A DNA stretch of 64,000 nucleotides. Source: Chiridota heheva (lineage: Eukaryota; Echinodermata; Holothuroidea; Apodida; Chiridotidae). Shown piece by piece: positions 18,315-63,560 of this stretch. Location: positions 809,001-873,000 of the forward strand of contig JAIGNY010000581.1 of NCBI GenBank assembly GCA_020152595.1, written 5' to 3'. Positions within the stretch are counted from its first letter, which is position 1. Each line of letters opens with the position of its first letter. The position numbers and the translations under genes were made by a program. The notes beneath the pieces were generated by a model. The model was not told where the DNA came from. It worked only from the letters and a program-made list of their open reading frames with translations, and did not search any database.

Positions 18315-18370
<56 letters not shown>

Positions 18371-18385: not shown

Positions 18386-18411
18386 TCTTTTGTTCTTTAA
18401 GTGTAACATGG

Positions 18412-26328: not shown

Positions 26329-26399
26329 TAAGAATACATTTTGTGTATCTAATATCAAGACAAGTATCAAATGGTTATCATCTGGTCTTTCTGTTCTAG

Positions 26400-26511: not shown

Positions 26512-27039
26512 GTAGGCTCAGCTACTCCAAAATCTAGAGACAGGCAGATGTCACATGACCTAGATTGATTTAAAGGAATATTCCCATGGTTTTTTGTAAA
26601 TTTTATTTGAAAGAGCATACTTTTCAAGCCAATTTATTCAAATCTTACCTACTTATGATTAATACTTATTAATGTATTGAGGTATTGTTGTATTTTCTCT
26701 TGGATGCATGAGGGGGGGGGGGAAGGTGGGGGGGGTGAGGGTAGTGCTTTTTTCTCGTGAGTTAGTGCTTGTATTAAGCATAATTATTCATATTGGTCTA
26801 CATATTTTTCAACATTCACAAAGTTCATTGTTTTTTTTAGTTTGTTTTTTATTGCTTATTATATATTTTTCTAAAGGTGGACTACATTGTAAATGTATTT
26901 GCTTATCTGGTCTTCCTCCACTGTATATAATGCACTTTGTAAAGTTCTTGCTGTATTGATATCTGTTTGTGGAAAATAAAATCTTGAAATAATTAATCTA
27001 AAATGATATCTTTTAATCTTCCTTTGCCAACCCTCATAG

Positions 27040-30290: not shown

Positions 30291-30900
30291 TACCATAACT
30301 TCAGAGCTGGAAAATAGAGTTGCACCATTTTCTAGGCCCAAGGTTTCTTCGTAATAAGCGCCCATGCTCCGGCGCCACGTACAATGTGCTATTTGAACTG
30401 CATTTTATAAACTGGTTCTATACTAGTCTCACAATAACCACCAAACAAAAAATTTGTGAAAATAAGGAAATAACATAACAAAACTTATTTTAAAAGTCTT
30501 CAAATTAAGAAAATAAATTATGTTATCAGTCAAACAATGTTGGGTAAGCAATTAATACGTCAAATATGGTATTATTTTTTTAAATGAAAAATGATTTCTT
30601 GAGTTAAGTAACAGTATATGTGGTAAGTATGTGCTTTAAAATGTCCCTGGGTAATTGTGCAATGAATAATACATTAAATTGCGAAAGAGGGAAGCACATA
30701 AAGATGCATTTACTACATTAATATTATTTCTGTCCCGATTTATCGTGGGAAGATTTTCGACACCTTTATTCAGAACAGTGGAAAATTTGATAATTAATTC
30801 CAACCCTGCATAACACATGAAAATGTATTATTCTACAATATGTTGCCACTTTTAAAAGCCTTATTCATCAGAGGGTCTATTTTTGTTCACATTTATACAG

Positions 30901-30981
30901 CAAAAGGAGGTGAACACCATACTGGCAGATATCATCAAGCACATGACCCCGGACAGGGCATTTGAAAATCATTATTCAGAG
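30901..30981 (+). CDS. VPS35L: VPS35L exon 17
   Basis: Acceptor TTTATACAG to 30900, donor GTAAGA at 30982; residues 541-567. [20 protein letters not shown] then FENHYSE, matching the vertebrate [27 protein letters not shown]. The 53-bp minisatellite begins only ~35 bp into the following intron. Confidence 0.96.
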
Positions 30982-31016
30982 GTAAGACCAACAAAGCAAA
31001 CATCTTTCTGTCTTGT

Positions 31017-34000: not shown

Positions 34001-37000
34001 ATAAAACAGCACATATGACTCTAGTGCCGTCATAACCTTAACAAACAAACAAACACATAAAAACAGCACATATGACTCTAGTGCCGTTATAACCTCAACA
34101 AACAAACACATAAAAACAGAACATATGACTCTAGTGCCGTCATAACCTTAACAAACAAACAAACACATAAAAACAGCACATATGACTCTAGTGCCGTTAT
34201 AGCCTCAACAAACAAACACATAAAACAGAACATATGATTAGTGCCGTCATAACCTTAACAAACAAACAAACACATAAAAACAGAACATATGATTAGTGCC
34301 ATTATAACCTCAACAAACAAACAAACAAATAAAAACAGCACATATGACTCTAGTGCCGTTATAACCTCAACAAACAAACACTTAAAAACAGCACATATGA
34401 CTCTAGTGCCGTCATAACCTTAACAAACAAACAAACACATAAAAACAGCACATATGACTCTAGTGCCGTCATAACCTTAACAAACAAACAAACACATAAA
34501 AACAGAACATATGATTAGTGCCATTATAACCTCAACAAACAAACAAACAAATAAAAACAGCACATATGACTCTAGTGCCGTTATAACCTCAACAAACAAA
34601 CACTTAAAAACAGCACATATGACTCTAGTGTTGTTATAACCTCAACAAACAAACACATAAAAACAGAACATATGACTCTAGTGCCGTTATAACCTCAACA
34701 AACAAACAAACACATAAAACAGCACATATGACTCTAGTGCCGTTATAACCTCAACAAACAAACACATAAAACAGCACATATGACTCTAGTGCCGTCATAA
34801 CCTTAACAAACAAACAAACACATAAAAACAGCACATATGACTCTAGTGCCGTCATAACCTTAACAAACAAACAAACACATAAAAACAGAACATATGATTA
34901 GTGCCATTATAACCTCAACAAACAAACAAACAAATAAAAACAGCACATATGACTCTAGTGCCGTTATAACCTCAACAAACAAACACTTAAAAACAGCACA
35001 TATGACTCTAGTGCCGTCATAACCTTAACAAACAAACACATAAAAACAGCACATATGACTCTAGTGCCGTCATAACCTTAACAAACAAACAAACACATAA
35101 AAACAGAACATATGATTAGTGCCATTATAACCTCAACAAACAAACAAACAAATAAAAACAGCACATATGACTCTAGTGCCGTTATAACCTCAACAAACAA
35201 ACACTTAAAAACAGCACATATGACTCTAGTGCCGTTATAACCTTAACAAACAAACAAACAAATAAAAACAGCACATATGACTCTAGTGCCGTTATAACCT
35301 CAACAAACAAACACATAAAACAGCACATATGACTCTAGTGCCGTTATAACCTCAACAAACAAACACATAAAAACAGCACATATGACTCTAGTGCTGTTAT
35401 AACCTCAACAAACAAACACATAAAAACAGCACATATGACTCTAGTGCCGTTATAACCTCAACAAACAAACACATAAAAACAGAACATATGATTAGTGCCA
35501 TTATAACCTCAACAAACAAACAAACAAATAAAAACAGCACATATGACTCTAGTGCCGTTATAACCTCAACAAACAAACACATAAAAACAGAACATATGAT
35601 TAGTGCCATTATAACCTCAACAAACAAACAAACAAATAAAAACATCACATATGACTCTAGTGTTGTTATAACCTTAACAAACAAACACATAAAAACAGCA
35701 CATATGACTCTAGTGCCGTCATAACCTTAACAAACAAACACATCAAAACAGCACATATGACTCTAGTGCCATCATAACCTCAACAAACAAACACTTAAAA
35801 ACATCACATATGACTCTAGTGCCGTTATAACCTCAACAAACAAACACATAAAAACAGCACATATGACTCTAGTGCCATCATAACCTCAACAAACAAACAC
35901 TTAAAAACATCACATATGACTCTAGTGTTGTTATAACCTTAACAAACAAACACATCAAAACAGCACATATGACTCTAGTGCCATCATAACCTCAACAAAC
36001 AAACACATAGAAACAGCACATATGACTCTAGTGCCGCCATTACCTCAACAAACAAACACATAAAAACAGCACATATGACTCTAGTGCCATCATAACCTCA
36101 ACAAACAAACACATAAAACAGCACATATGACTCTAGTGCCGTCATAACCTCAACAAACAAACACATCAAAACAGCACATATGACTCTAGTGCCATCATAA
36201 CCTCAACAAACAAACACATAGAAACAGCACATATGACTCTAGTGCCGTCATAACCTCAACAAACAAACACATCAAAACAGCACATATGACTCTAGTGCCG
36301 TCATAACCTTAACAAACAAACAAACACATAAAAACAGCACATATGACTCTAGTGCCGTTATAACCTCAACAAACAAACACATAAAAACAGCACATATGAC
36401 TCTAGTGCCATCATAACCTTAACAAACAAACACATCAAAACAGCAGCACATATGACTCTAGTGCCGTCATAACCTCAACAAACAAACAAATAAAACAGCA
36501 CATATGACTCTAGTGCCGTCATAACCTCAACAAACAAACACATAAAAACAGCACATATGACTCTAGTGCCGTTATAACCTCAACAAACAAACAAACAAAC
36601 ACATAAAAACAGCACATATGACTCTAGTGCCGTTATAACCTCAACAAACAAACACATAAAAACAGCACATATGACTCTAGTGCCGTCATAACCTTAACAA
36701 ACAAACAAACACATAAAAACAGCACATATGACTCTAGTGCCGTTATAACCTCAACAAACAAACACATAAAAACAGCACATATGACTCTAGTGCCATCATA
36801 ACCTTAACAAACAAACACATCAAAACAGCACATATGACTCTAGTGCCGTCATAACCTCAACAAACAAACACATAGAAACAGCACATATGACTCTAGTGCC
36901 GTCATAACCTTAACAAACAAACACATCAAAACAGCACATATGACTCTAGTGCCGTCATAACCTTAACAAACAAACAAACACATAAAAACAGCACATATGA

Positions 37001-37950
37001 CTCTAGTGCCGTCATAACCTCAACAAACAAACACATCAAAACAGCACATATGACTCTAGTGCCGTCATAACCTTAACAAACAAACAAACACATAGAAACA
37101 GCACATATGACTCTAGTGCCGTTATAACCTCAACAAACAAACACATAAAAACAGCACATATGACTCTAGTGCCATCATAACCTTAACAAACAAACACATC
37201 AAAACAGCACATATGACTCTAGTGCCGTCATAACCTCAACAAACAAACACATAGAAACAGCACATATGACTCTAGTGCCGTCATAACCTCAACAAACAAA
37301 CACATCAAAACAGCACATATGACTCTAGTGCCGTCATAACCTTAACAAACAAACAAACACATAAAAACAGCACATATGACTCTAGTGCCGTTATAACCTC
37401 AACAAACAAACACATAAAAACAGCACATATGACTCTAGTGCCATCATAACCTTAACAAACAAACACATCAAAACAGCACATATGACTCTAGTGCCGTCAT
37501 AACCTCAACAAACAAACACATAGAAACAGCACATATGACTCTAGTGCCGTCATAACCTCAACAAACAAACACTTAAAAACATCACATATGACTCTAGTGT
37601 TGTTATAACCTTAACAAACAAACACATCAAAACAGCACATATGACTCTAGTGCCATCATAACCTCAACAAACAAACACATAAAAACAGCAGTATGACTCT
37701 AGTGCCGTTATAACCTCAACAAACAAACACATAAAACAGCACATATGACTCTAGTGCCGTCATAACCTCAACAAACAAACACATCAAAACAGCACATATG
37801 ACTCTAGTGCCGTCATAACCTCAACAAACAAACACATAAAACATCACATATGACTCTAGTGCCGCCATTACCTCAACAAACAAACACATAAAAACAGCAC
37901 ATATGACTCTAGTGCCGTTATAACCTCAACAAACAGGCACATAAAACAGC
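31017..37950 (+). repeat. 6.9-kb minisatellite, ~53-bp unit, VPS35L intron 17
   Basis: About 128 tandem copies of a unit containing CAGCACATATGACTCTAGTG, CCGTTATAACCTCAACAAAC and AAACACATAAAAA. Length varies in 4-bp steps from extra AAAC blocks (about 52, 53, 57 and 61 bp). Point variants are GTTATAACC/GTCATAACC, CTCAAC/CTTAAC, ACATAAAA/ACATCAAAA/ACATAGAAA. The ACATC and ACATAG variants cluster after about 35.7 kb, and a short GATTAGTGCC variant lies mainly at 34.2-35.6 kb, which indicates regional block amplification. The GTGCCGTTAxAACCTCAACAAACAAAC part resembles the LINE-A 3' terminus. Confidence 0.97.
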
Positions 37951-38599
37951 AAAACTATCAGTTATGTTGAGTTTTTTAAATATTTTTTAAATAAAATGCT
38001 AAGATGAACATTAATAGCTCATGAGGTACGATCAGGTCAAACACAAGTATTGGCAACAAGGCACTGTAAGAGATATCCTCATGGGCCAATCAGTGGTTCA
38101 CAGCAGCTTAGAAATGGAATAAAAAAATCCTCTGCTACATAATGGAGCTGCGAGAAGATGATGATGCACCCAAGGCTTGAATGACTGGGCCCCTTTGTCT
38201 TGTATCTCTCCAACAACACAGTCTGGGAGACTTTACCAAGCTACAGTGTGGATCAAACTCCTGTCAGTGGAATAGGGTCTTGAGACAGGTTCAGTGAGTG
38301 CATGACTCGGCATAGACAGACTGGAATGGAGTTCATTTGTTTGTACAAATCCTTTGAGGAATTTTGTTTATTTTATGTATTTTTCCTCTAAAAACTTCAA
38401 ATATTTTTCCATGTAATTTTAAAGGTTTCAACTTCTAAATATTAATCTGATGATTGAAGCCTTTTAAGAAGGAGCTTAGTCACATATATAATATTTGCAT
38501 TACATGAACGGATGCATACTTTTTCCATTCCCTAGTTTCTGCAATGTCATGCATTGTGCATACGCATGTTCCTTACTAGTTACAAGGGAAATTGAACGG

Positions 38600-39990
38600 G
38601 ACCTGGTGGGGTCAACCTAGCTGAGAAGGTTACCATTTTTCAAGTGTATTATTATGCCTAGCATGGTTCCCAATATAAGAATATGGATGTCTGCCGAGTT
38701 CTGCCTGGTGGGTGTGGTAATAGGGTAATGCTGGAATGGAACCCCCAAAATAAGTTAGATCAGCTGAGAAGGTTACTGAATAAAACTTAGTGTGAAATGT
38801 TCAGCATAATACCATAAATGACTATTGCCAGAAATTCTATGCAGTAGGATACCCCTGCCAGATGGCAATTGGACAGCCCCCAAAAAATGAGCTACATCAG
38901 CTAAAATTACCGAATGAAACTTACTGCAAACTGTTCAGCGTAATCCCATGAGGCATAAATGACTATTGCCAGAAATTTTATGCCATGGGGTATCCCCACC
39001 AGAAGCCCCTAATAGGCCAAAACCCCAAAATTGAGCTAGATCGGCTTAGAAGGTTACCAAATGAATATTACTGCAAATTGTTCAGCATAATCCTGTGAGT
39101 CATAAATGACTATTGCCAGAAATTTTATGCAGTGGGCTACCCCTGGCAGACGGTAATTGGCCAGCCCCCAAAAATGAGCTAGATCAGCTGAGAAGGTTAC
39201 CGAATGAAACTTACTTCAAAATGTTCAGCATAATCCCGTGAATCATGAAGACTATTGCCAGAAATTTTATGCGAAGCCCCTAATAGGCCAAAACCCCAAA
39301 ATAGAGCTAGATCATCTGATTGAGTAACCAAATGAAATGTACTGTAGAGTGTTCAGAATAATCCCACGAGTCATAAATGACTATTGCCATTCTCCAAGAT
39401 TGCTCTATACATGGGGTTCTCCATACACAGGTACACAAGTCTGCAAGTGTGGCCATCACCAGCAAGTGTGCATAAGAAACTCATTGGCACTTCGGGATCT
39501 TTAGGCAATGGCAGCTTTCATCCAAAGGCAGTAATACCCTCGCTAGAAGGCCCTAACTGGCCAGCCCCAAAATTGAGCTAGATCAGCTGATTGAGTAACC
39601 AAATAACTAATAACTTTCCGTCTTATTGCCAGAAATTTTCAGTGGTGAGGTACCCATGCCCTGCTAGAAGGTTCAAATTCGCCATTCTCAGAAAATCAGC
39701 TGATTGAGTTAGTGAATAAATGTTCTGTAATATGTTCAGATTAATCCTCATGTATCATTAATTACTCTTGACCACTTGACAGAAGTTTTATGCGGCGGTT
39801 GGAATGAGGAGAAGGGTCATCCTCGCCAATATGTCCAAATGGCTCATCTCCACGGTTAGGCTAGATCATTTGAGTCGCTGAACATCTGAATGAAATGTAC
39901 TGCAGAATGTTCGGCACACCCACACGATGGGCCATATGTCTTTATGTACCATGAATGACTTTTGCTAGAAACATGGTGGCGAGACATGCA
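38600..39990. repeat. Degenerate ~140-bp tandem repeat
   Basis: GAGCTAGATCAGCTGAGAAG-type blocks recur at about 38613, 38754, 38888, 39034, 39176, 39304, 39575, 39700 and 39858, each followed by GAATGAAACTTACTxCAAA and TAAATGACTATTGCCAGAAA. Roughly nine diverged copies, period near 140 bp with one enlarged spacing. No frame stays open through it. Confidence 0.85.
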
Positions 39991-42837: not shown

Positions 42838-43215
42838 TTTTTATCTTTTCTCGTTATTTCCCTTTAACCATGAATTTCTCTCATTCTCCCCCTGTTTCCT
42901 TTCCATCCTACCTCTAGAATGATCTGACCTCTCAGGCACAATTTGACTTTCGTTGTCGTAGTGCCATTAAGCCCTCATCAAACAAGCAAACATTAACCAT
43001 ACACTTATTTATGTAAGAGATATTTTCCCCCTTTTGACCCATCTTTATCTTTTCTCGTTATATCCCTTTAACCATGAATTTCTCTCATTCTCCCCCTGTT
43101 TCTTTTCCATCCTACCTCTAGAATGATCTGACCTCTCAGGCACAATTTGACCCTCATTGTTGTGGTGCCGTTAAGCCCTCATCAAACAAACAAACATTAA
43201 CCATACAGTTATTTA
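42838..43215 (+). mobile_element. LINE-A 3' fragment in tandem duplicate
   Basis: Two direct copies (about 42838-43012 and 43038-43215) share TTTATCTTTTCTCGTTAT, ACCATGAATTTCTCTCATTC, CTCTAGAATGATCTGACC, the LINE 3' end and also the non-LINE flank CATTAACCATACACTTATTT. Because the flank is duplicated too, this is a tandem duplication after a single insertion rather than two insertions. Confidence 0.8.
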
Positions 43216-45854: not shown

Positions 45855-46985
45855 CTACATTGCAATGATCTTTTTTCTTTGGATTTTGGATTCAAGAGAA
45901 CTGTAGCTTGAACTGGAGGATAAGTCATGATTGTTCATTATATCCAAACTCTCCTCATTGGTCAATTTAGTCTGCTTCTTGAATAAATTAATTCTTATTC
46001 CAATGTCGATTACCAGAAGCACACACAAGAGAACTATTGCGGAAATGACAAAAGGTAAAAAGGATCCAAAAGAAGAATCAGTTGGTCCAGTTGATTGCAA
46101 GTAGTCCGAGGACAAAGAGCATTCAATTGTTGTGGAATCGTCCACATTTTGTGTAGTAAGTGTTTCTAGGGTTGTGCTGGCTTCTTCATTGTAAGTTGCT
46201 AGTTCTTTTGGCGCTTCATCGGTGCAGTTGTAGCAGTACTCGTTGAAGCTTGGATGGTTAGTTATTTGCTGACAGGGTGAGCCTTGACAAGCACATGCTG
46301 GCAAAGCATCATTGTTTTCACACGTGATGCATATCTTAAAAAAGTCCACCAGGTAATGAAAGTTTTTAGTGGTATCACATTGTATTGGGTTGTCCAATAC
46401 AGTAACGTAGACATTCTTATTGAAATCAAATAATCCTCTCACAATTTGTGTCAAATTATTTCCTTCAAGATTTAGTATTTTTAATTTTGACAGCCTGTGG
46501 AATTGTTTTGGACGTAAAGATTCAATGTGGTTGTTATTCAAGTAGAGTTCTTCTAGCTCTGTTATAGTTCGGAATGTGTGTTTTTCTATTTCTCGGATGA
46601 AATTGTTTTCTAAGTGAAGGATTTGTAGGTCAGAACTGCCCTCAAATGTTTCTTTAGAAAGTCTTGATAATTCATTATAGCTTAGATAAAGTATTTGTAT
46701 AGAAACACTTTCAATTAAGACTGAAGAGAACTTGTTGTGTGACAAGTCAAGCCATTTGAGGCATGGTAGATTCTCTGTGTAGTTGACCACATGGGCAGGA
46801 TCCATCTCAATATGTGAGGCATTGAATCCAATAATACGCTCACCTTTAGCAAAACAAAATGATAGATTCAAATAGCTGCAGTCTGTTTCCCTCTCATGGC
46901 TTGCATCACAGTCATACTTCTTGCCCAACACCACAACAGGCAAAATTGTAGCTAAAATTGCTGCAGATGTGAGTATGGCATTCAT
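45855..46985 (-). CDS. Single-exon LRR type I transmembrane protein, 376 aa
   Basis: Intact frame on the - strand, start 46985, stop 45855. Residues 1-21 form a signal peptide (MNAILTSAAILATILPVVVL). A cysteine-bearing N-cap follows (Cys26, 36, 44). About five leucine-rich repeats span residues 74-200 with LxxLxLxxN signatures (LKWLDLSHNKF, IQILYLSYNEL, LQILHLENNFI, LEELYLNNNHI, LKILNLEGNNL). A Cys-rich C-cap follows (Cys203, 219, 222, 231, 233, 238, 251, 254), then a Thr/Ser-rich stalk, one membrane helix (about 308-330, FLPFVISAIVLLCVLLVIDI) and a 46-residue Ser-rich cytoplasmic tail without a TIR domain. Potential N-glycosylation sites at Asn40, 55, 68, 177 and 253. The LRR ectodomain suggests cell-surface recognition or adhesion; ligand and subfamily are unknown. 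If VPS35L continues beyond the window, this gene is nested antisense in its intron 18. Confidence 0.85.
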   Translation of the reverse strand: MNAILTSAAILATILPVVVLGKKYDCDASHERETDCSYLNLSFCFAKGERIIGFNASHIEMDPAHVVNYTENLPCLKWLDLSHNKFSSVLIESVSIQILYLSYNELSRLSKETFEGSSDLQILHLENNFIREIEKHTFRTITELEELYLNNNHIESLRPKQFHRLSKLKILNLEGNNLTQIVRGLFDFNKNVYVTVLDNPIQCDTTKNFHYLVDFFKICITCENNDALPACACQGSPCQQITNHPSFNEYCYNCTDEAPKELATYNEEASTTLETLTTQNVDDSTTIECSLSSDYLQSTGPTDSSFGSFLPFVISAIVLLCVLLVIDIGIRINLFKKQTKLTNEESLDIMNNHDLSSSSSYSSLESKIQRKKIIAM

Positions 46986-47720
46986 ACTTTTTGGAAGTCT
47001 GTGTGCTCTTAACTTGTATTCTTAAATCCCAAACAAAAGTTTTGATGAATATCACGCTCTGTATAAATGCCCTATGAACATCCTTTCAGGGTGTCTTTCC
47101 TAAAAATGATGAATTTGCCGTGCTCTTCTAAATGGAAAACCGAATGAAAGCTGACAACAGATGATGTGAATGGGTTACATATAATGTGTTTAAATTACAT
47201 GCTCAGCACTTTTCCTTTTATTAAAAAAACAAATTTGAAAGAAAATTGACATCCAAAAATAAATTTTAATTTCATTTTTAAGTCTTTTGTCCTGTGTTAT
47301 TTCAAAGGAGACACATGGGTTTGAATGCTTGTTTTTATGTTAATGAGATGATGAAATATTTTCCCATATCATAAATATACTTTCAGCTTCAAAAAGTGTA
47401 TTTCTGTTCAACAATTTTCTTTTAACATTTGCTTTTTATAAACTAATTTCAAATATTATGTTTGTGTTTTGTGATACAACTCTTATGTCATTTAATTCAT
47501 TTCTATGAGTAACTGGATTTTTTAAATTTCATAATATTTCTCCCAAAATGTAAACACTTGACATGCTATACATTTGAGATTAGAGAATTGTTTGATGTGA
47601 AAAAGTCTCCTAAAGAGAAGTTATGATATATCCAGATAATCATATTTGTTTCATCTATGAGGGTTTTTACTTTTGGAACATCTTACTTTACTGATATCTA
47701 AAGAAAATTCATGTGTGTCA
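46986..47720. other. 5' flank of the LRR gene, duplicated at 51150-51900
   Basis: Non-coding, A+T-rich. Matches 51150-51900 in blocks such as CAGATGATGTGAA, TTTCAAAGGAGA and TTATAAA..GATTTCAAATATTATGTTT. This shows that the broken LRR copy was duplicated with its upstream region. The promoter should be here, but no clear TATA or initiator stands out. Confidence 0.6.
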
Positions 47721-48891: not shown

Positions 48892-49199
48892 GGGTATGTC
48901 AGTCATGCCTCACCCTGCCCAGAACTGCAGAAATTACAACAAGACTTAAAACTGATGCTAATATATGAAAGGCATGCATACTGTACTGTATTAATGTCCT
49001 TAGTTGTTGACTTTCAAAAACTAATTAATTGACATTGTCTTATCCTCTAAAGATGAATATCAAATGATAGTCAAGCAGCTGCTGATATAATTTCTTTTAT
49101 TTTTAGATATTAGGTAGACTAATCATCCTGTACATAATAAACCAGAAAGTAGCAGATTTCTCTTCATTTGATTTAATTCACTGATTTTGGTTTAATAGT

Positions 49200-49650
49200 G
49201 AAAGTTGAAGTACATGAAAGTAACACAAAAACACCCTAGTAAAAACATTGAAGGGAGGAAATGTTTATTAATAAAATTATAATTCATGTGGTAATTGATT
49301 GGTTTTAAAAGGAAGGTAATTCTGACCCTTTACACTTCGTAAATTTTCTCCTTTCAGAATCAAGATGTACAAAGTTCTTAGAAATTTACATATTAAAATC
49401 AACATTGAAAAGAACAAGCAAGTACTAAATTTAATGGAGGAAGTGTTTGTTTGAAAAGCATAATTTTTGTGAAAATTTGTGTTTGTATGAATGGATATTT
49501 CTCATTGATGGAGATGTTTCAAACTTTTCCCACATCATATAATTCCTTTCAGTTTCAAGGGTGCAAAGAGCCTATTTTTATGTTGCCACTTTCAACATTC
49601 ACTTCCAACATTGCAATGGGTGAAGAAAAAAGGTCAAATATTTTTGTCCA
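49200..49650 (+). repeat. Duplicated segment D4, copy with a single 39-bp-type unit
   Basis: Matches the flanks of the large array: 49200-49488 resembles 52485-52764 and 49529-49650 resembles 62083-62240. Shared blocks include AAATTTTCTCC.TTCAG, AATGGAGGAAGT.TTTGT, CCTTTCAGTTTC and TGCAAAGAGCCTAT. At 49489-49528 lies one unit (GAATGG.xxxxxxTCATTGATG then GAGATGTTTCAAACTTTT) where the other copy has about 239. Confidence 0.8.
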
Positions 49651-49928
49651 AGATTGTAGGTGAGAATCATAACAATGGTTTTAATGCTTGTAGTGTCAGG
49701 ACTGGAAACAGGACCCTACACTTTCCTCAAATTTTAGTTTAATAATGATTGATAGTAACCCTTGTCGGACAGTAAGGCTTACTCGTACTTCTGCCAATTT
49801 CAGTCGAATGAGAATAACACTAAATATGTATACATATCAAAGACTTTTTAGACCATGCATTAAACATTAATGTATATTATTTATCAGTTCTCTGAACTGC
49901 AGTGAACCTTCTGTTTGGCCCATTTTAA

Positions 49929-50447
49929 AGGAAAATTCCCATGGTTGTTTGTAAAATTTTATTTGAAAGTGTATACTTTTAGAGCTAATTTGGTACAAAA
50001 ATTAGGTTGATATCATATTCCATTCAGAAGATGTGGACTTTTAAAGATTTCCCAATTGCATTTTAAAGTTTTTGTACAATATGATGAATTTATATTTAAT
50101 GATGTCATAGAGGCAATTCCATTGCAAATGTTTATTTATTTCTTTGAAGTAGGGTATATTTGGCAATGTATATAAATACCTTACTTTCATCAATTTATTT
50201 TCCTAGCAGGTTTTACTAATAAAAAAAAGGATGATAGATTTTAATAAAATACATAAACTTTGTAAGAGAATGTGTTGCTGTGAAGTTATACTGAGCCTTT
50301 TCCTATACGTTTATTGGCATTTTTTGTGAACCTTAAAATGTGAACATCTTCTGGTAGGAATAACATATTAACATGATTTGTGTACTCATTTGTTTATAAA
50401 TTATTCTTTTTCTTATGAAAGACGACAAAAAACATGGGAATATTCCT
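49929..50447. mobile_element. MITE with TTAA duplication, family M3
   Basis: TTAA at 49925-49928 and 50448-50451. Termini AGGAAAATTCCCATGGTTGT and, reversed from the right, AGGAATATTCCCATGTTTTT. About 519 bp, no coding capacity. Its right end abuts the truncated LRR pseudogene. A left-end fragment (AAAGGAATATTCCCATGG) is at 26570-26660 in intron 14. Confidence 0.8.
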
Positions 50448-51146
50448 TTAAGCATGGTAGATTCTCTGTGTAGTTGACTGCATGTGCTGAATTCATCTCA
50501 ATATGTGAGGCATCAAATCCAATTATACGCTCACCTTTAGCAAAATAAAATGGTAGATTCAAGTAGCTGCAGTCAGTTTCCCTCTCATGGGTTGCATCAC
50601 AATCATACAGTACTTCTTGCCCAACACCACTAGAGAGGAAAATATCATGATGAAATAACCCTTTTGAGAGGAATGGTCCATCAATCATTCATGGGCATTG
50701 CACAAATTTCTCCATACATATAAAGCATAATTTATATTTAGGGTCAGCCAGGGACTAATCTGTTCCACTTCACTGCAAAGCAGTAATGTGGTTTTAGCCC
50801 CTGATGAATGACCTATTGTGTACAGTATTACAGTAGCTGGTTGCTAGCAAGTGAACTGAGAAGAGGCTCTCAGTTGGAAGGTGTAGATTACCTGTGTTGT
50901 ATATGGTGTAACAGTAGCTGGTTGCTAGTTAATAAACTGTGAAGAGACTGTAAAGAGGCTCTCAATTGGAAGGTATTGATTACCTCTATGTTGTGTGTGG
51001 TGTAACAATAGCTGTTTGCTAGTAAGTGAACTGTGAAGATCTCGCAGGTTGAAAGGTGTGGATTACCCCTGATTTTAAGAAAACCTAGGGATAAAAATTC
51101 TTAATGTAGCTCAAATTTGTGCAAATCATGTAAGTATGACATTCAT
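50446..51146 (-). pseudogene. Broken second copy of the LRR membrane gene
   Basis: The start is preserved near 51146 (ATGAATGTCATACTTAC, M-N-V-I-L, compared with M-N-A-I-L in 45855-46985). It is separated by ~500 bp of inserted repeat from the homologue of residues 20-77 at about 50636-50446 (ATHERETDCSYLNLPFYFAK, GERIIGFDASHIEMNSAHAV, NYTENLPCLK). A 5-bp insertion (CAGTA) shifts the frame just before the first Cys, Cys44 is replaced by Tyr, and all LRRs, the stalk and the membrane helix are gone at the MITE boundary. Non-functional. Confidence 0.85.
50640..51115. repeat. Inserted repeat D5 inside the LRR pseudogene
   Basis: Matches about 52080-52480 (CCATCAATCATTCATGGG, ATTTATATTTAGG.TCAGCCA, GACTAATCTG, AACAGTAGCTG.TTGCTA, AAAATTCTTAATGTAG). 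It lies between the signal-peptide codons and the mature-domain codons of the pseudogene, where the intact gene has no intron. Internally it repeats a ~110-bp GTAACAGTAGCTGGTTGCTA unit three times. Confidence 0.75.
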
Positions 51147-51149
51147 ACT

Positions 51150-51900
51150 TTTTGAAAGTCTTGTGCGCTTCTAAATAAATTCACAGTCTGTATCTTCAAT
51201 ATCAAACTAAAGTTGCTGTGATGATTATTACATTCTGAATAAACATCTGAAGGTGTCTTTATCAAAATTGATCAATTTGCCAAGCTCTTCTAAACGTGAA
51301 AACTAAGTGAAATTTGGGAACAGATGATGTGAAATTGTTTTATATACTAAATACAATATAAGGTGTTCAGATCACATGATCATCACTTTTGCTTTTATGA
51401 TATTAAAAGAGGAAGAAACAAATTTTTAAAGAAAATTAACAGCCAAATTTATGGACTTTTTGAAAAGTGTAATATTCTGTGTTTCAAAGGAGATCGACTC
51501 ACAGTTTTGAATGAATGTTTGTAAGTTCAAGTGATGGTGAATTTTTCTCCCATATCATAAATTTACTTTCAGTTTCAAAAAGTTTAAAAGTGATATTTCT
51601 CTTCAACAATTTTATTTTTACATTTTCTTTTTTATAAATTGATTTCAAATATTATGTTTATGTTTTGTGATACAACTTTATGTTATCTAATGCATTAAAG
51701 TTTAATAGTTTATATTTACATATACAACAGAATATATTATACTTTATTTTTTACATATGCTTCTTATAAATTGATTTTGAAATTGATTTGTTTATGTTTT
51801 GCGACATAACTGTTTGTTTGTTCATTTTTTTGACTAAGTACATTTTTCAAATCCATTCTAATTCTCTTAAACGCTGGACAATGCTGTTCATTTGAGGACC
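51150..51900. repeat. Duplicated LRR upstream region
   Basis: Counterpart of 46990-47680, directly upstream of the pseudogene start. A+T-rich, no genes. Confidence 0.65.
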
Positions 51901-52079: not shown

Positions 52080-52480
52080 CATGAGGAAATAAACATCTTT
52101 ATGAGGAATAGTCCATCAATCATTCATGGGTATTGCACAAAGTCCTCCCAACGTATGATTTATATTTAGGCTCAGCCAAGGACTAATCTGATTCACTTTA
52201 CTGCATAGCAGTTATGTGGCTTGAGCTCCAGATGAATGACCCATTGTGTACAGTGTAACAGTAGCTGCTTGCTAACAAGTGAACTGTGAATAGACTATGA
52301 AGATGATGTCAGTTTGAAGGTTAAGATTATCCTTGTGTTGTTTATGGTGTAACAATAGCTGGTTGCTAGTCAATGAATTGTGAAAGTCTCTCAGTTTGAA
52401 TGGTGTGGATAACCCCTGATTCTAAGAAAATTGAGGGTGTCGGGTTGGAGGGGTCTAAGGGCCAAAAATTCTTAATGTAG
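52080..52480. repeat. Repeat D5, second copy
   Basis: Partner of 50640-51115. Leads into the D4 copy (52485-52764) that precedes the 39-bp array. Confidence 0.7.
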
Positions 52481-52764
52481 TAAAAGTGGAAGAAATATAA
52501 ATCAACAAGAAAATACCCAAGTAAAAATTTGAGGGAGGAAACATTTGTTGATAATCATCATAGATTTAATGGCTTGGTTGTATAAGAAAGATGATTCAGA
52601 CCCTTGTCACATTGTAAATTTTCTCCCTTCAGTTTCAATGTGTACAAAGTTTGTAGAAATTCACAAATTAAAATTCATGTTTAAAAGGACAAACTAGTAC
52701 CAAAATTAATGGAGGAAGTTTTTGTCTAAAATAGAATAATTTATGTGAAAATTGTGTATTCGTA

Positions 52765-55700
52765 TGAGTGGATGTGTATTATTTATGTTGATGATTCAAA
52801 CTTTGAGTGGATGTGTATCATTTATGTTGATGAATCAAACTTTTGAGTGGATGTGTATTATTTATGGAGATGATTCAAACATTGAGTGGATGTGTATTAT
52901 TTACAGAGATGATACAAACTTTGACTGGATGTGTATTATTTACAGAGTTGATTCAAACTTTGAGTGGATGTGTATTATTTACAGAGTTGATTCAAACTTT
53001 GAGTGGATGTGTATTGTTTACAGAGTTGATTCAAACTTTGAGTGGATGTGTATTATTTACAGAGTTGATTCAAACTTTGAGTGGATGTGTATTATTTACA
53101 GAGATGATTCAAACTTTGAGTGGATGTGTATTATTTACAGAGATGATTCAAACTTTGAGTGGATGTGTATTATTTACAGAGTTGATTCAAACTTTGAGTG
53201 GATGTGTATTATTTACAGAGATTATTCAAACTTTGAGTGGATGTGTATTATTTACAGAGATGATTCAAACTTTGAGTGGATGTGTATTATTTACAGAGAT
53301 GATTCAAACTTTGAGTGGATGTGTGTTATTTACAGAGTTGATTCAAACTTTGAGTGGATGTGTGTTATTTACAGAGATGATTCAAACTTTGAGTGGATGT
53401 GTATTATTTACAGAGATGATTCAAACTTTGAGAGGATGTGTATTATTTACAGAGATTATTCAAACTTTGAGTGGATGTGTATTATTTACAGAGATGATTC
53501 AAACTTTGAGTGGATGTGTATTATTTACAGAGATGATTCAAACTTTGAGTGGATGTGTATTATTTACATTGATGATTCATACTTTGAGAGGATGTGTATT
53601 ATTTACAGAGATAAATCAAACTTTGAGTGGATGTGTATTATTTATGTTGATGAATCAAACTTTGAGTGGATGTGTATTATTTACAGAGATGAATCAAACT
53701 TTGAGTGGATGTGTATTAATTTACAGAGATTATTCAAACTTTGAGTGGATGTGTATTATTTATGTTGATGAATCAAACTTTGAGTGGATGTGTATTATTT
53801 ATGTTGATGAATCAAACTTTGAGTGGATGTGTATTATTTACAGAGATGATTCAAACTTTGAGTGGATGTGTATTATTTACAGAGATGATTCAAACTTTGA
53901 GTGGATGTGTATTATTTACAGAGATTATTCAAACTTTGAGTGGATGTGTGTTATTTACAGAGATGATTCAAACTTTGAGTGGATGTGTATTATTTACAGA
54001 GTTGATTCAAACTTTGAGTGGATGTGTATTATTTACAGAGATGATTCAAACTTTGAGTGGATGTGTATCATTTATGTTGATGAATCAAACTTTGAGTGGA
54101 TGTGTATTATTTACATTGATGATTCATACTTTGAGAGGATGTGTATTATTTACAGAGATGAATCAAACTTTGAGTGGATGTGTATTATTTACATTGATGA
54201 TTCATACTTTGAGAGGATGTGTATTATTTACAGAGATAAATCAAACTTTGAGTGGATGTGTATTATTTATGTTGATGAATCAAACTTTGAGTGGATGTGT
54301 ATTATTTATGTTGATGAATCAAACTTTGAGTGGATGTGTATAATTTACAGAGATGAATCAAACTTTGAGTGGATGTGTATTATTTATGTTGATGAATCAA
54401 ACTTTGAGTGGATGTGTATAATTTACAGAGATGAATCAAACTTTGAGTGGATGTGTATTATTTATGTTGATGAATCAAACTTTGAGTGGATGTGTATTAT
54501 TTATGTTGATGAATCAAACTTTGAGTGGATGTGTATTATTTATGTTGATGAATCAAACTTTGAGTGGATGTGTATTATTTACATTGATGATTCATACTTT
54601 GAGAGGATGTGTATTATTTACAGAGATAAATCAAACTTTGAGTGGATGTGTATTATTTACAGAGATGAATCAAACTTTGAGAGGATGTGTATTATTTATG
54701 TTGATGAATCAAACTTTGAGTGGATGTGTATTATTTACAGAGATGATTCAAACTTTGAGTGGATGTGTATTATTTACAGAGATGATTCAAACTTTGAGTG
54801 GATGTGTATAATTTATGTTGATGAATCATACTTTGAGAGGATGTGTATAATTTACAGAGATGAATCAAACTTTGAGTGGATGTGTATTATTTACAGAGAT
54901 GAATCAAACTTTGAGTGGATGTGTATTATTTACAGAGATGATTCAAACTTTGAGTGGATGTGTATTATTTATGTTGATGAATCATACTTTGAGAGGTTGT
55001 GTATTATTTACAGAGATGATTCAAACTTTGAGTGGATGTGTATTATTTATGTTGATGAATCATACTTTGAGAGGATGTGTATTATTTACAGAGATGATTC
55101 AAACTTTGAGTGGATGTGTATTATTTATGTTGATGAATCATACTTTGAGAGGATGTGTATTATTTACAGAGATGAATCAAACTTTGAGTGGATGTGTATT
55201 ATTTACAGAGATGAATCAAACTTTGAGTGGATGTGTATTATTTACAGAGATGATTCAAACTTTGAGTGGATGTGTATTATTTATGTTGATGAATCATACT
55301 TTGAGAGGATGTGTATTATTTACATTGATGAATCATACTTTGAGTGGATGTGTATTATTTACAGAGATGATTCAAACTTTGAGTGGATGTGTATAATTTA
55401 TGTTGATGAATCATACTTTGAGAGGATGTGTATAATTTACAGAGATGAATCAAACTTTGAGTGGATGTGTATTATTTACAGAGATGAATCAAACTTTGAG
55501 TGGATGTGTATTATTTACAGAGATGATTCAAACTTTGAGTGGATGTGTATAATTTATGTTGATGAATCATACTTTGAGAGGATGTGTATAATTTACAGAG
55601 ATGAATCAAACTTTGAGTGGATGTGTATTATTTACAGAGATAAATCAAACTTTGAGTGGATGTGTATTATTTACATTGATGATTCATACTTTGAGAGGAT

Positions 55701-58700
55701 GTGTATTATTTACAGAGATGAATCATACTTTGAGAGGATGTGTATTATTTACAGAGATAAATCAAACTTTGAGTGGATGTGTATTATTTACATTGATGAT
55801 TCATACTTTGAGAGGATGTGTATTATTTACAGAGATGAATCATACTTTGAGAGGATGTGTATTATTTACAGAGATAAATCAAACTTTGAGTGGATGTGTA
55901 TTATTTACATTGATGATTCATACTTTGAGTGGATGTGTATTATTTACATTGATGATTCATACTTTGAGAGGATGTGTATTATTTACATTGATGATTCATA
56001 CTTTGAGAGAATGTGTATAATTTACAGACATAAATCAAACTTTGAGTGGATGTGTATAATTTACATTGATGATTCATACTTTGAGAGGATGTGTATTATT
56101 TACAGAGTTGATTCAAACTTTGAGTGGATGTGTATTATTTACATTGATGATTCATACTTTGAGTGGATGTGTATTATTTACATTGATGATTCATACTTTG
56201 AGAGGATGTGTATTATTTACAGAGATGAATCATACTTTGAGAGGATGTGTATAATTTACAGAGATAAATCAAACTTTGAGTGGATGTGTATAATTTACAT
56301 TGATGATTCATACTTTGAGAGGATGTGTATTATTTACAGAGTTGATTCAAACTTTGAGTGGATGTGTATTATTTACATTGATGATTCATACTTTGAGAGG
56401 ATGTGTATTATTTACAGAGTTGATTCATACTTTGAGAGGATGTGTATTATTTACAGAGTTGATTCAAACTTTGAGAGGATGTGTATTATTTACATTGATG
56501 ATTCATACTTTGAGAGGATGTGTATTATTTACATTGATGATTCATACTTTGAGAGGATGTGTATTATTTACAGAGTTGATTCAAACTTTGAGAGGATGTG
56601 TATTATTTACAGAGATGAATCAAACTTTGAGTGGATGTGTATTATTTACAGAGATGATTCAAACTTTGAGTGGATGTGTATTATTTACATTGATGATTCA
56701 TACTTTGAGAGGATGTGTATTATTTACAGAGATGATTCAAACTTTGAGTGGATGTGTATTATTTACATTGATGATTCATACTTTGAGAGGATGTGTATTA
56801 TTTACAGAGATAAATCAAACTTTGAGTGGATGTGTATTATTTATGTTGATGAATCATACTTTGAGAGGATGTGTATAATTTATGTTGATGAATCAAACTT
56901 TGAGTGGATGTGTATTATTTACAGAGATGATTCAAACTTTGAGTGGATGTGTATTATTTACAGAGATGAATCAAACTTTTTTGAGTGGATGTGTATTATT
57001 TATGTTGATGAATCAAACTTTGAGTGGATGTGTATTATTTACAGAGATGAATCAAACTTTGAGTGGATGTGTATTATTTACAGAGATGATTCAAACTTTG
57101 AGTGGATGTGTATAATTTATGTTGATGAATCATACTTTGAGAGGATGTGTATTATTTACAGAGATGATTCAAACTTTGAGTGGATGTGTATAATTTATGT
57201 TGATGAATCATACTTTGAGAGGATGTGTATTATTTACAGAGATGATTCAAACTTTGAGTGGATGTGTATTATTTACAGAGATGATTCAAACTTTGAGTGG
57301 ATGTGTATAATTTATGTTGATGAATCATACTTTGAGAGGATGTGTATAATTTACAGAGATGAATCAAACTTTGAGTGGATGTGTATTATTTACAGAGATG
57401 AATCAAACTTTGTGTGGATGTGTATTATTTATGTTGATGAATCAAACTTTGAGTGGATGTGTATTATTTACATTGATGATTCATACTTTGAGAGGATGTG
57501 TATTATTTACAGAGATGAATCAAACTTTGAGTGGATGTGTATTATTTATGTTGATGAATCATACTTTGAGAGGATGTGTATAATTTACAGAGATGAATCA
57601 AACTTTGAGTGGATGTGTATTATTTACAGAGATGAATCAAACTTTGAGTGGATGTGTATTATTTATGTTGATGAATCATACTTTGAGAGGATGTGTATAA
57701 TTTACAGAGATGAATCAAACTTTGAGTGGATGTGTATTATTTACATTGATGATTCATACTTTGAGAGGATGTGTATTATTTACAGAGATAAATCAAACTT
57801 TGAGTGGATGTGTATTATTTATGTTGATGAATCATACTTTGAGAGGATGTGTATTATTTACAGAGATGATTCAAACTTTGAGTGGATGTGTATTATTTAC
57901 AGAGATGAATCAAACTTTGAGTGGATGTGTATAATTTATGTTGATGAATCAAACTTTGAGAGGATGTGTATAATTTATGTTGATGAATCATACTTTGAGA
58001 GGATGTGTATAATTTACAGAGATGAATCAAACTTTGAGTGGATGTGTATTATTTACAGAGATAAATCAAACTTTGAGTGGATGTGTATTATTTATGTTGA
58101 TGAATCATACTTTGAGAGGATGTGTATTATTTACATTGATGATTCATACTTTGAGAGGATGTGTATTATTTACAGAGATAAATCAAACTTTGAGTGGATG
58201 TGTATTATTTATGTTGATGAATCATACTTTGAGAGGATGTGTATTATTTACATTGATGATTCATACTTTGAGAGGATGTGTATTATTTACAGAGATAAAT
58301 CAAACTTTGAGTGGATGTGTATTATTTATGTTGATGAATCATACTTTGAGTGGATGTGTATTATTTACAGAGATGAATCAAACTTTGAGTGGATGTGTAT
58401 TATTTACATTGATGATTCATACTTTGAGAGGATGTGTATTATTTACAGAGATAAATCAAACTTTGAGTGGATGTGTATTATTTATGTTGATGAATCAAAC
58501 TTTGAGAGGATGTGTATTATTTACAGAGATGATTCAAACTTTGAGTGGATGTGTATAATTTACAGAGATGAATCAAACTTTGAGTGGATGTGTATTATTT
58601 ACAGAGATAAATCAAACTTTGAGTGGATGTGTATTATTTATGTTGATGAATCATACTTTGAGAGGATGTATTATTTACATTGATGATTCATACTTTGAGA

Positions 58701-61700
58701 GGATGTGTATTATTTACAGAGATAAATCAAACTTTGAGTGGATGTGTATTATTTATGTTGATGAATCATACTTTGAGAGGATGTGTATTATTTACATTGA
58801 TGATTCATACTTTGAGAGGATGTGTATTATTTACAGAGATAAATCAAACTTTGAGTGGATGTGTATTATTTATGTTGATGAATCATACTTTGAGAGGATG
58901 TATTATTTACATTGATGATTCATACTTTGAGAGGATGTGTATTATTTACAGAGATAAATCAAACTTTGAGTGGATGTGTATTATTTATGTTGATGAATCA
59001 AACTTTGAGTGGATGTGTATTATTTACATTGATGATTCATACTTTGAGAGGATGTGTATTATTTACATTGATGATTCATACTTTGAGAGGATGTGTATTA
59101 TTTACATTGATGATTCATACTTTGAGAGGATGTGTATTATTTACATTGATGATTCATACTTTGAGAGGATGTGTATTATTTACAGAGATAAATCAAACTT
59201 TGAGAGGATGTATAATTTACAGAGATGAATCAAACTTTGAGTGGATGTGTATTATTTACAGAGATAAATCAAACTTTGAGTGGATGTGTATTATTTATGT
59301 TGATGAATCAAACTTTGAGTGGATGTGTATTATTTACAGAGATGATTCAAACTTTGAGTGGATGTGTATTATTTACATTGATGATTCATACTTTGAGCGG
59401 AGGTGTATTATTTACAGAGATGATTCAAACTTTGAGTGGATGTGTATTATTTACAGAGATGATTCAAACTTTGAGTGGATGTGTATAATTTATGTTGATG
59501 AATCATACTTTGAGAGGATGTGTATAATTTACAGAGATGAATCAAACTTTGAGTGGATGTGTATTATTTACAGAGATGAATCAAACTTTGAGTGGATGTG
59601 TATTATTTATGTTGATGAATCATACTTTGAGAGGATGTGTATAATTTACAGAGATGAATCAAACTTTGAGTGGATGTGTATTATTTACATTGATGATTCA
59701 TACTTTGAGAGGATGTGTATTATTTACAGAGATAAATCAAACTTTGAGTGGATGTGTATTATTTATGTTGATGATTCATACTTTGAGAGGATGTGTATAA
59801 TTTACAGAGATGAATCAAACTTTGAGTGGATGTGTATTATTTATGTTGATGAATCATACTTTGAGAGGATGTGTATAATTTACAGAGATGAATCAAACTT
59901 TGAGTGGATGTGTATTATTTACAGAGATGAATCAAACTTTGAGAGGATGTGTATTATTTATGTTGATGATTCATACTTTGAGAGGATGTGTATAATTTAC
60001 AGAGATGAATCAAACTTTGAGTGGATGTGTATTTTTATGTTGATGAATCATACTTTGAGAGGATGTGTATAATTTACAGAGATGAATCAAACTTTGAGTG
60101 GATGTGTATTATTTACAGAGATGAATCAAACTTTGAGTGGATGTGTATTATTTACAGAGATGAATCAAACTTTGAGAGGATGTGTATAATTTACAGAGAT
60201 GAATCAAACTTTGAGTGGATGTGTATTATTTACAGAGATGATTCATACTTTGAGAGGATGTGTATAATTTACAGAGATGAATCAAACTTTGAGTGGATGT
60301 GTATTATTTATGTTGATGAATCATACTTTGAGAGGATGTGTATAATTTACAGAGATGAATCAAACTTTGAGTGGATGTGTATTATTTATGTTGATGAATC
60401 AAACTTTGAGTGGATGTGTATTATTTACAGAGATGAATCAAACTTTGAGTGGATGTGTATAATTTACATTGATGATTCATACTTTGAGAGGATGTGTATT
60501 ATTTACAGAGATGAATCAAACTTTGAGTGGATGTGTATAATTTACAGAGATGAATCAAACTTTGAGTGGATGTGTATTATTTACAGAGATGAATCAAACT
60601 TTGAGTGGATGTGTATTATTTACATTGATGATTCATACTTTGAGAGGATGTGTATTATTTACAGAGATGAATCAAACTTTGAGTGGATGTGTATTATTTA
60701 CATTGATGATTCATACTTTGAGAGGATGTGTATTATTTACAGAGATGAATCAAACTTTGAGTGGATGTGTATTATTTACATTGATGATTCATACTTTGAG
60801 AGGATGTGTATTATTTATGTTGATGAATCAAACTTTGAGAGGATGTGTATTATTTACAGAGATGAATCAAACTTTGAGAGGATGTGTATTATTTACAGAG
60901 ATGAATCAAACTTTGAGAGGATGTGTATTATTTACAGAGATGATTCATACTTTGAGAGGATGTGTATTATTTACAGAGATGAATCAAACTTTGAGTGGAT
61001 GTGTATTATTTACATTGATGATTCATACTTTGAGAGGATGTGTATTATTTACAGAGATGAATCAAACTTTGAGTGGATGTGTATTATTTACATTGATGAA
61101 TCATACTTTGAGAGGATGTGTATTATTTACAGAGATGAATCAAACTTTGAGTGGATGTGTATTATTTACATTGATGATTCATACTTTGAGTAGATGTGTA
61201 TTATTTACAGAGATGATTCAAACTTTGAGTGGATGTGTATTATTTACATTGATGATTCATACTTTGAGAGGATGTGTATTATTTACAGAGATGAATCAAA
61301 CTTTGAGTGGATGTGTATTATTTACATTGATGATTCATACTTTGAGAGGATGTGTATTATTTACAGAGATGAATCAAACTTTGAGTGGATGTGTATTATT
61401 TACAGAGATGAATCAAACTTTGAGTGGATGTGTATTATTTACAGAGATGATTCAAACTTTGAGAGGATGTGTATTATTTATGTTGATGAATCAAACTTTG
61501 AGAGGATGTGTATAATTTACAGAGATGAATCAAACTTTGAGTGGATGTGTATTATTTACAGAGATGATACAAACTTTGAGTGGATGTGTATTATTTACAG
61601 AGATGATACAAACTTTGAGTGGATGTGTATAATTTACAGAGATGATTCAAACTTTGAGTGGATGTGTATTATTTATGTTGATGAATCAAACTTTGAGAGG

Positions 61701-62084
61701 ATGTGTATAATTTACAGAGATGAATCAAACTTTGAGTGGATGTGTATTATTTACAGAGATGAATCAAACTTTGAGTGGATGTGTATTATTTACAGAGATG
61801 ATTCAAACTTTGAGTGGATGTGTATTATTTACAGAGATGAATCAAACTTTGAGTGGATGTGTATTATTTACAGAGATGAATCAAACTTTGAGTGGATGTG
61901 TATTATTTACAGAGATGATACAAACTTTGAGCGGAGGTGTATTATTTACAGAGATGATACAAACTTTGAGTAGATGTGTATTATTTACAGAGATGATACA
62001 AACTTTGAGTGGATGTGTATTATTTACAGAGATGAATCAAACTTTGAGTGGATGTGTATTATTTACAGAGTTGATTCAAACTTT
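52765..62084 (+). repeat. 9.3-kb minisatellite, 39-bp unit, ~239 copies
   Basis: Unit: GAGTGGATGTGTATTATTT followed by ACAGAGATGATTCAAACTTT. Three main variable positions define types: ACAGAGATG/ACAGAGTTG/ACAGAGATAA/TATGTTGATG/ACATTGATG; ATTCAAAC/AATCAAAC/ATTCATAC; GAGTGG/GAGAGG. CATAC is nearly always followed by GAGAGG. Nearly all units are exactly 39 bp, so two + frames stay open for long stretches (one reads FEWMCIIYRDDSN per unit, the other LSGCVLFTEMIQT) and a 1946-codon frame runs 52843-58683 across one 1-bp insertion near 53718. No signal peptide, homologous family or splice context is seen, so I annotate a repeat, not a gene. Confidence 0.96.
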
Positions 62085-62276
62085 TTCCACTTCATAGAAA
62101 TCCTTTCAGTTTCTAACTGTGCAAAGAGCCTATATTTGTGTTGATATTTATGCATACAAAATTACAAGAAAACACCCAAATTACTTTCAAAAAATGCAAT
62201 GGAGGAATTTGCATTGATTAATAAAAACCATCATTCTTGTAAAGACATGTTTTTTATAAGAATGATGTCTCTTAGG
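62085..62276 (+). repeat. Right flank of the array (segment D4)
   Basis: Matches 49529-49650 (CCTTTCAGTTTC, TGCAAAGAGCCTATxTTTxTGTTG, GCAATGG), completing the duplicated segment in which the array expanded. Confidence 0.7.
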
Positions 62277-62658
62277 CATTAAGTCTAAACCTTGCAATAC
62301 ATTTTGTGTTTTAAGCTCTGACAAAATCTAAAATCTGTCAGGGTCTATATTGCTCACAACAGAAACCACAAACCAGCACAAGAAATGAGCAATTACACCA
62401 GGGATTTCCACACTCTTCACCTCACTTTCAATGGTCATAATCTGACATTGATAGTAAACAAATTTCACTGCAGCTGCACTGACCTTTCCTTGTGGTCAAT
62501 GTGTCTGGCTTGAAGTAATAATTTACAAATAGGGTGGTATTTAACAGTTAAGGTTTTGTTTGTTTATTGATGAGTGATTTTAAGTGATGTTTTTGTTCAA
62601 CCTTGTAGGCTTTGAGAATTGTGGACTAAAAATCAATTGCAACAGATTTTCATCATGG
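62277..62658 (+). repeat. Duplicated segment D1, second copy
   Basis: Partner of 29335-29744 in VPS35L intron 16; same orientation. No gene inside; the 101-codon - frame just downstream (62580-62885) has no recognisable features. Confidence 0.8.

Positions 62659-63059: not shown

Positions 63060-63560
<501 letters not shown>

What the first reader, a model, noticed from the sequence alone, without database searches (positions are those of the whole stretch)
52765..62084. 9.3-kb 39-bp minisatellite whose single-unit ancestor is still present at 49489-49528
The array's left and right flanks (52485-52764 and 62083-62240) are contiguous in a paralogous segment at 49200-49650. There one 40-bp unit, GAATGG...TTTCAAACTTTT, stands in place of ~239. 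This gives a before/after picture of minisatellite birth: segmental duplication first, then expansion from one unit in one copy only.
Basis: seen in the sequence. Interest (0 to 1): 0.75.

Follow-up and report, generated by a model that had tools for sequence, protein, structure and literature searches.

The report
Long minisatellite with unexpanded sister copies
A 9.3-kb array of a 39-base repeat grew from one of several old, similar DNA segments lying close together in an animal-like genome, while sister segments still hold a single unit; this is a tidy example of a well-known process rather than a new one.

Summary
52765-62084 is a 239-unit, 39-bp array. Its flanks are contiguous in a paralogous segment at 49196-49585 that carries exactly one unit (49489-49527). 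Joined flanks plus one unit score 330, against at most 31 in 100 shuffles. The right-hand homology ends at 62143/49585, not 62240/49650. In own-genome searches the array has one place and each flank two.

Two additions. (1) The paralogy belongs to a partial duplication of an LRR-protein gene (45858-46985, -) and its upstream DNA. Copy B carries a truncated LRR remnant and the array. (2) The unit is part of an older degenerate motif of about 180 bp with seven recognisable copies. Two of these (47323-47361, 51509-51547) also hold one ungapped 39-bp counterpart. The three clean sites outside the array are all single-unit, which favours expansion over contraction.

The single copy is a sister, not literally the ancestor: both lineages carry private changes. 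Edge units are closer to it than middle units, a partly non-specific trend. No 5-10 bp direct repeat flanks the founder today. Growth by slippage or unequal exchange of multi-unit blocks is inferred.

An ordinary minisatellite, unusually well polarised within one genome.

The parts
52766..62084 (+). 39-bp minisatellite, 239 units, consensus GAGTGGATGTGTATTATTTACAGAGATGAATCAAACTTT; G-rich and C-poor on + strand
52478..52765 (+). left flank of the array (copy B), homologous to 49196-49488
   Evidence: 224 identical, 62 mismatched, 9 gap columns
62085..62143 (+). right flank of the array (copy B), homologous to 49528-49585
   Evidence: (50 identical, 8 mismatched, 1 gap)
49489..49527 (+). single 39-bp unit in the paralogous, unexpanded copy A (P2A)
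49196..49585 (+). unexpanded paralogous segment (copy A) spanning both flanks and one unit
47323..47361 (+). single-unit counterpart in older motif copy P0A: 24/39 identical to the 49489 unit and 24/39 to the array consensus
51509..51547 (+). single-unit counterpart in older motif copy P0B: 22/39 identical to the 49489 unit and 22/39 to the array consensus
49224..49392 (+). older ~180-bp motif, copy P1A
52506..52665 (+). older ~180-bp motif, copy P1B
62165..62277 (+). older ~180-bp motif, copy P3B (partial), right of the array
45858..46985 (-). open reading frame for a 376-aa LRR protein (signal peptide and membrane segment judged by eye only); source gene of the duplication
50446..50607 (-). 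truncated LRR-gene copy in block B: 54 residues at 87% identity, no further match
46947..47501 (+). upstream part of duplicated block A, homologous to 51105-51696

Best explanation
A stretch holding the start of an LRR-protein gene and a few kilobases of upstream DNA was duplicated next to itself. The upstream DNA already contained a degenerate motif of about 180 bp in several copies, and in at least two of them one 39-bp segment is still alignable. Later the 39-bp segment of one motif copy in block B was tandemly duplicated. Once two or more units existed, slippage or unequal exchange/conversion, often moving blocks of several units, raised it to 239. The same segment at the other clean sites stayed single. 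SHOWN: array, paralogy, single-unit state at three other sites, truncated gene copy, block-wise repeats inside the array, no second array found in the held genome. INFERRED: direction (expansion), that it came long after the duplication, slippage/exchange as the engine, absence of function.
For: Single-unit alignment of joined flanks without a gap at the unit. Two further motif copies with an ungapped 39-bp counterpart (24/39 and 22/39 to the 49489 unit; 0 and 6 of 31,000 overlapping window 39-mers reach those values). P0A-P2A and P0B-P2A score 68 and 63 against maxima of 41 and 44 in 100 shuffles each. At positions 3 and 11 the three single-unit sites agree and no array unit has their base; at 9 and 19 the 49489 unit is the odd one; at 13 and 29 the polarity is unclear. 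Mean pairwise difference inside the array is 9.7% (largest pair 28.2%), against 21.7% and 13.8% in the flanks and 25.6% between unit consensus and single copy. Sixteen pairs of identical 4-unit strings against a mean of 0.21 (maximum 2) in 200 shuffles of unit order; longest identical block six units at a 50-unit lag. Indels of 1 or 2 bases in six units and of 3 bases in one argue against coding. Left flank, gene-proximal block and right flank have two places each in the genome, with all first-look candidates scored.
Against: No allele, individual or related species was available, so direction rests on within-genome paralogues only. Array homogenisation breaks any clock, so a 9.7% mean against 14-22% does not date the expansion, and the largest unit pair (28.2%) exceeds the flank divergence. 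The edge gradient against the 49489 unit (rho 0.33; 27 of 5000 block permutations; 11 of 3000) is partly non-specific: it also appears against the array consensus (rho 0.21, 5 of 3000) and P0A (0.32, 1 of 3000) but not P0B (0.02, 1099 of 3000), and the single-copy bases at positions 21-22 are rarer at the edges than in the middle. P1 copies lack a clean 39-bp counterpart (gaps). Six of the 21 motif-copy pairs, all P0 with P1 or P3, do not exceed their shuffles, and P0B with the collapsed array copy (50 against 49) and that copy with P3B (43 against 42) barely do.
Confidence: 0.8

Rival explanations
1. Contraction: the array existed before the block duplication, both copies inherited it, and copy A collapsed to one unit.
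For: Single-unit collapse by slippage or single-strand annealing is possible in any tandem array (general knowledge). A collapsed copy would be expected to resemble edge units, and edge units are the closer ones to the 49489 unit.
Against: The base state of the motif is single: P0A and P0B, one in each block, hold one counterpart. The 49489 unit has the P0 bases at positions 3 and 11, where no array unit has them.
Confidence: 0.1
2. Import: a ready-made array moved into copy B by transposition or conversion from another locus.
For: None found; the genome search skips very common words and caps candidates, so a diverged source could be missed.
Against: One place for the array in the held genome; the units are homologous to the base sequence at exactly this register in the paralogue.
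Confidence: 0.03
3. The array is a translated or regulatory element kept by selection (39 = 13 codons; one open frame of 1949 residues at 52834-58683).
For: Long open frames on the + strand of the array.
Against: Any 39-bp unit without an in-frame stop gives such frames; six units carry indels of 1 or 2 bases; the neighbouring gene copy is truncated.
Confidence: 0.03
4. Assembly artefact in length or content.
For: Arrays of this size are easily mis-assembled (general knowledge); no reads were available.
Against: The array lies inside a 2.8-Mb contig with an irregular order of 53 unit types. The one-unit paralogue does not depend on array length.
Confidence: 0.04

Closest known systems
TRIB3 promoter 33-bp VNTR (PMC7425993, passages seen)
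   Same: A unit of 30-40 bp that is repeated in one lineage and single-copy in others (great apes and other mammals in that paper)
   Different: 1 to 5 copies, polarised by other species; here 239 units, polarised by paralogous copies in the same genome whose flanks differ by 14-22%
CACNA1C 30-bp 'TRACT' array (PMC13131567, a preprint: abstract, one section and passages seen)
   Same: Multi-kilobase array (3-30+ kb) of similar unit length with variant units, thought to have grown through tracts of identical units later broken by mutation
   Different: That paper reports tracts of up to 26 identical units in some long-class alleles; here the longest run is three. That its unit is single-copy in chimpanzee is recalled, not seen
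Minisatellite copy-number differences between human segmental-duplication paralogues (PMC2812944, passages seen)
   Same: Repeat number differs between paralogues; the authors used mouse and dog as outgroups where they could and concluded that the repeats mostly expanded
   Different: Genic repeats averaging 30-bp units repeated 4 times; here 239 units against one, upstream of a truncated gene copy in an older duplication
Haber and Louis model of minisatellite origin (1998; seen only as described in PMC6947457)
   Same: Founder duplication of a short stretch, then slippage, gene conversion or unequal exchange
   Different: The 5-10 bp direct repeats flanking the founder are not seen here (longest match run 3 bp at offsets 38-40)

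Membership tests
Minisatellite (definition recalled: units of about 10-100 bp in arrays of 0.5 to tens of kb) | Head-to-tail units of tens of bases over kilobases | tested here: met
   239 units of 39 bp, 9.3 kb
Minisatellite (definition recalled: units of about 10-100 bp in arrays of 0.5 to tens of kb) | Interspersed variant units with block-wise turnover | tested here: met
   53 unit types; 16 pairs of identical 4-unit strings against 0.21 expected
Minisatellite (definition recalled: units of about 10-100 bp in arrays of 0.5 to tens of kb) | Length polymorphism between individuals (VNTR) | not testable with these tools
   one assembly only
Haber-Louis founder model | 5-10 bp direct repeats flanking the founder unit | tested here: inconclusive
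   no match run above 3 bp at offsets 38-40 in copy A or in collapsed copy B; flanks have diverged enough to have erased a short repeat
Transposon-derived minisatellite | Unit or flanks are part of a dispersed element | tested here: not met
   left flank, gene-proximal block and right flank each have two places in the genome; dispersed hits begin only at about 49583. The tool skips very common words, so this is not exhaustive
Coding minisatellite | Frame kept across units | tested here: not met
   six of 239 units have indels of 1 or 2 bases

The most novel reading that the evidence does not exclude
One genome holds a replicated natural experiment: of four clean homologous sites of one 39-bp segment, three stayed single over an old duplication while one grew 239-fold, and the founder duplication did not need flanking short repeats. 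What decides birth would then be a rare repeat-independent event at the founder rather than sequence predisposition.
Probability: 0.3. Interest if true: 0.45.

Novelty: new member of a known kind. Interest (0 to 1): 0.3.

Why it matters
In the papers seen here, repeat expansions were polarised mainly by comparing species or haplotypes. Here the unexpanded state survives in paralogous copies near the array, which gives internal outgroups and lets one ask which changes preceded expansion (positions 3 and 11 of the unit) and whether flanking repeats were needed. The consequence is modest: it illustrates a known process and offers a testable locus, not a new mechanism.

Tried and rejected
Coding or regulatory role of the array: rejected because the frame is not kept and the neighbouring gene copy is truncated. 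RNA family: no Rfam match in the window at gathering thresholds. Import from elsewhere: no second array found. Transposon origin of unit or flanks: not supported. The edge gradient as proof of the ancestor: weakened by my own controls against the array consensus, P0A and P0B. The second large array (53 bp, 31016-37951): its joined flanks with one unit gave no hit outside 30700-38260 in the 104 kb tested, while its left flank alone had two hits left of the window. A genome search with that left flank and first units scored only 40 of 2571 candidates, so the question is open; the right-flank search did not complete. A Pfam scan of seven window reading frames gave LRR families and a weak DUF6549 match for the LRR protein, an RNase H match below its cut-off for one frame, and nothing for the other five. 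Literature: answered searches listed no paper that I recognised as describing this locus.

Dropped rows and errors of mine: one search lists 240 rows; one dummy single-base row at 52765 was removed before all later unit counts, leaving 239. In one search the single unit was taken one base too early, so its identities to that unit and its gradient (rho 0.16) were wrong and are replaced; the unit-type, block and linkage counts do not use that coordinate. P0A and P0B starts were located with typed seed strings taken from the alignment. The motif profile was iterated on its own hits, so its E-values are not independent evidence; the pair scores are the check.
Full report
WHAT WAS CHECKED. The window is G000:C577:809001-873000 of a 1.1-Gb genome in 3744 contigs, name not given; no relatives of it are held. 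Two reading frames similar to VPS35L and an LRR protein gene make it a eukaryote, probably an animal (inference).

THE ARRAY. Tandem Repeats Finder reports 52765-62084, period 39, 239.0 copies. Segmentation against the consensus gives 239 full units from 52766 of 53 distinct sequences, 31 of them seen once. Variation sits at few positions, mainly 4, 15, 21-24, 28, 30 and 34. Neighbouring units are rarely identical: 8% at lag 1, and the longest run of identical units is three, seen twice. Longer blocks recur: 16 pairs of identical 4-unit strings against a mean of 0.21 and a maximum of 2 in 200 shuffles. That fits growth and turnover by blocks. The + strand of the array is G-rich and C-poor (2083 G, 670 C).

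THE PARALOGUE. The left flank aligns to 49196-49487 and the right flank (62087-62143) to 49530-49585. Joined flanks with one unit align without a gap in or beside the unit. The single unit is 49489-49527, 29/39 identical to the consensus and 31/39 to the unit at 52845, which also matches it at 8 of 9 polymorphic positions tested, the most of any of the 239 units. From about 49584 copy A runs into dispersed DNA: a search with 49190-49700 scored 40 of 228 candidates and gave 42 matches, of which three are copy A itself and the two sides of copy B, and the other 39 lie at query 394-500, that is at or right of 49583.

GENOME-WIDE. The array search gave 69 matches, all in this array. The left flank, the right flank and the gene-proximal block 46950-47620 each gave two places, both in this window, with both candidates scored. 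The tool skips very common words, so distant relatives could be missed.

THE LARGER DUPLICATION. An open LRR gene lies at 45858-46985 on the minus strand. Its N-terminal part and upstream DNA recur in block B: 46756-46946 with 50447-50643 (87%), 46947-47501 with 51105-51696 (72%), and 49196-49585 with 52478-62143 across the collapsed array (78%). The B copy of the gene keeps 54 residues at 87% identity, and no further match follows. Mismatches per aligned base are 9.8% in the shared coding piece, 17.0% upstream (with 87 gap columns), 21.7% in the left flank and 13.8% in the right flank. Genome-wide, all other LRR matches listed are at most 41% identical (108 matches; 109 of 420 candidates scored), so no closer outgroup copy of the block was found.

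AN OLDER REPEAT GIVES OUTGROUPS. The flanks contain a degenerate motif of about 180 bp. A profile grown from three seeds over four rounds found seven copies in the array-masked window: P0A 47315-47399, P1A 49224-49392, P2A 49408-49583, P0B 51500-51599, P1B 52506-52665, P2B (the array copy, hit in two halves) and P3B 62165-62277. Because the profile was iterated, I checked all 21 pairs directly, each against 100 shuffles. Fifteen exceed their shuffles, among them P2A with P0A (68 against 41), P0B (63 against 44), P1A (74 against 43), P1B (68 against 44) and P3B (56 against 38). Two of the fifteen do so by one point only (P0B with collapsed P2B 50 against 49; collapsed P2B with P3B 43 against 42). 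Six do not: P0A and P0B each with P1A, P1B and P3B. The unit has an ungapped 39-bp counterpart at P0A (24/39 to the 49489 unit) and P0B (22/39); of 31,000 overlapping 39-mers from 1-31038 the best reaches 23/39 and six reach 22 or more. P0B alone is therefore near the tail of chance and rests on its place in the motif and its 28/39 match to P0A. P1 counterparts are a few bases shorter with gaps, so I do not count them.

DIRECTION. Six positions are fixed or nearly so in the array and differ from the 49489 unit. At 3 and 11 the three single-unit sites agree and the array is derived. At 9 and 19 the 49489 unit is derived. At 13 and 29 the polarity is unclear. So the 49489 unit is a sister that keeps the one-unit state. 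Expansion in copy B alone explains this; contraction needs an array before the duplication, a collapse in copy A, and a collapse that escaped or reversed the two array-derived changes.

EDGE GRADIENT. Units near the ends are closer to the 49489 unit: first ten 9.5, last ten 10.3, units 61-180 11.2 differences; rho 0.33, 27 of 5000 block permutations. The controls are mixed: the same trend appears against the array's own consensus (0.21) and P0A (0.32), not P0B (0.02). Per position, 4, 23, 30 and 34 carry the 49489-type base more often in the first and last 20 units than in the middle, while 21-22 carry it less often. I read it as a more diversified middle with older edges, and as weak support only.

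FOUNDER. In copy A and in collapsed copy B no match run above 3 bp exists at offsets 38-40, so the 5-10 bp flanking repeats of the Haber-Louis model (as described in PMC6947457, passage seen) are not visible. Divergence could have erased them.

LITERATURE. Seen as passages: PMC6947457, PMC7425993, PMC2812944, PMC3599147, PMC3356730. PMC13131567 (a preprint): abstract, passages and one section. Units that are single-copy in other lineages and paralogue differences in minisatellite length are known, so the kind of event is not new.

VERDICT. Real, well polarised for a single genome, and ordinary in kind. On re-checking I lowered the main confidence from 0.82 to 0.80 because the P0B site and two motif pairs are weaker than first stated, and the artefact rival from 0.05 to 0.04 to keep the odds consistent.

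Noticed in passing
31016-37951: A second large minisatellite, 53-bp unit, about 128 copies, with the opposite strand skew (C- and A-rich on +). No single-unit paralogue of its joined flanks in 104 kb.
   Followed up: partly
window coordinates -12894 to 68066 (loci L005, L003, window, L004): Further arrays over 300 bp within 104 kb: 27-bp, 19-bp and 32-bp units left of the window, about 145-bp (38742-39272) and 204-bp (42840-43215) inside, 64-bp (67484-68066) to the right. The region looks rich in tandem repeats; no genome-wide baseline was made.
   Followed up: no
52766-62084: Bases at position 34 of one unit and position 4 of the next are tightly linked (A-T 146, T-A 70, other combinations 22 of 238 neighbouring pairs), so exchange seems rarely to break inside that short stretch.
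   Followed up: no
52766-62084, unit positions 21-24: Four haplotypes: CAGA 144, TGTT 52, CATT 42, TGGA 1 of 239. The single TGGA, the state of the 49489 unit, is in the third unit from the left edge (52845).
   Followed up: partly
4589-4957 and 26353-26565: Reading frames similar to VPS35L (E 0.00014 and 1.1e-9 to PDB 8p0v chain O), so part of the window probably lies in a large-intron gene on the + strand.
   Followed up: partly
17973-18386 and 63336-63548: Long TA-rich simple repeats.
   Followed up: no
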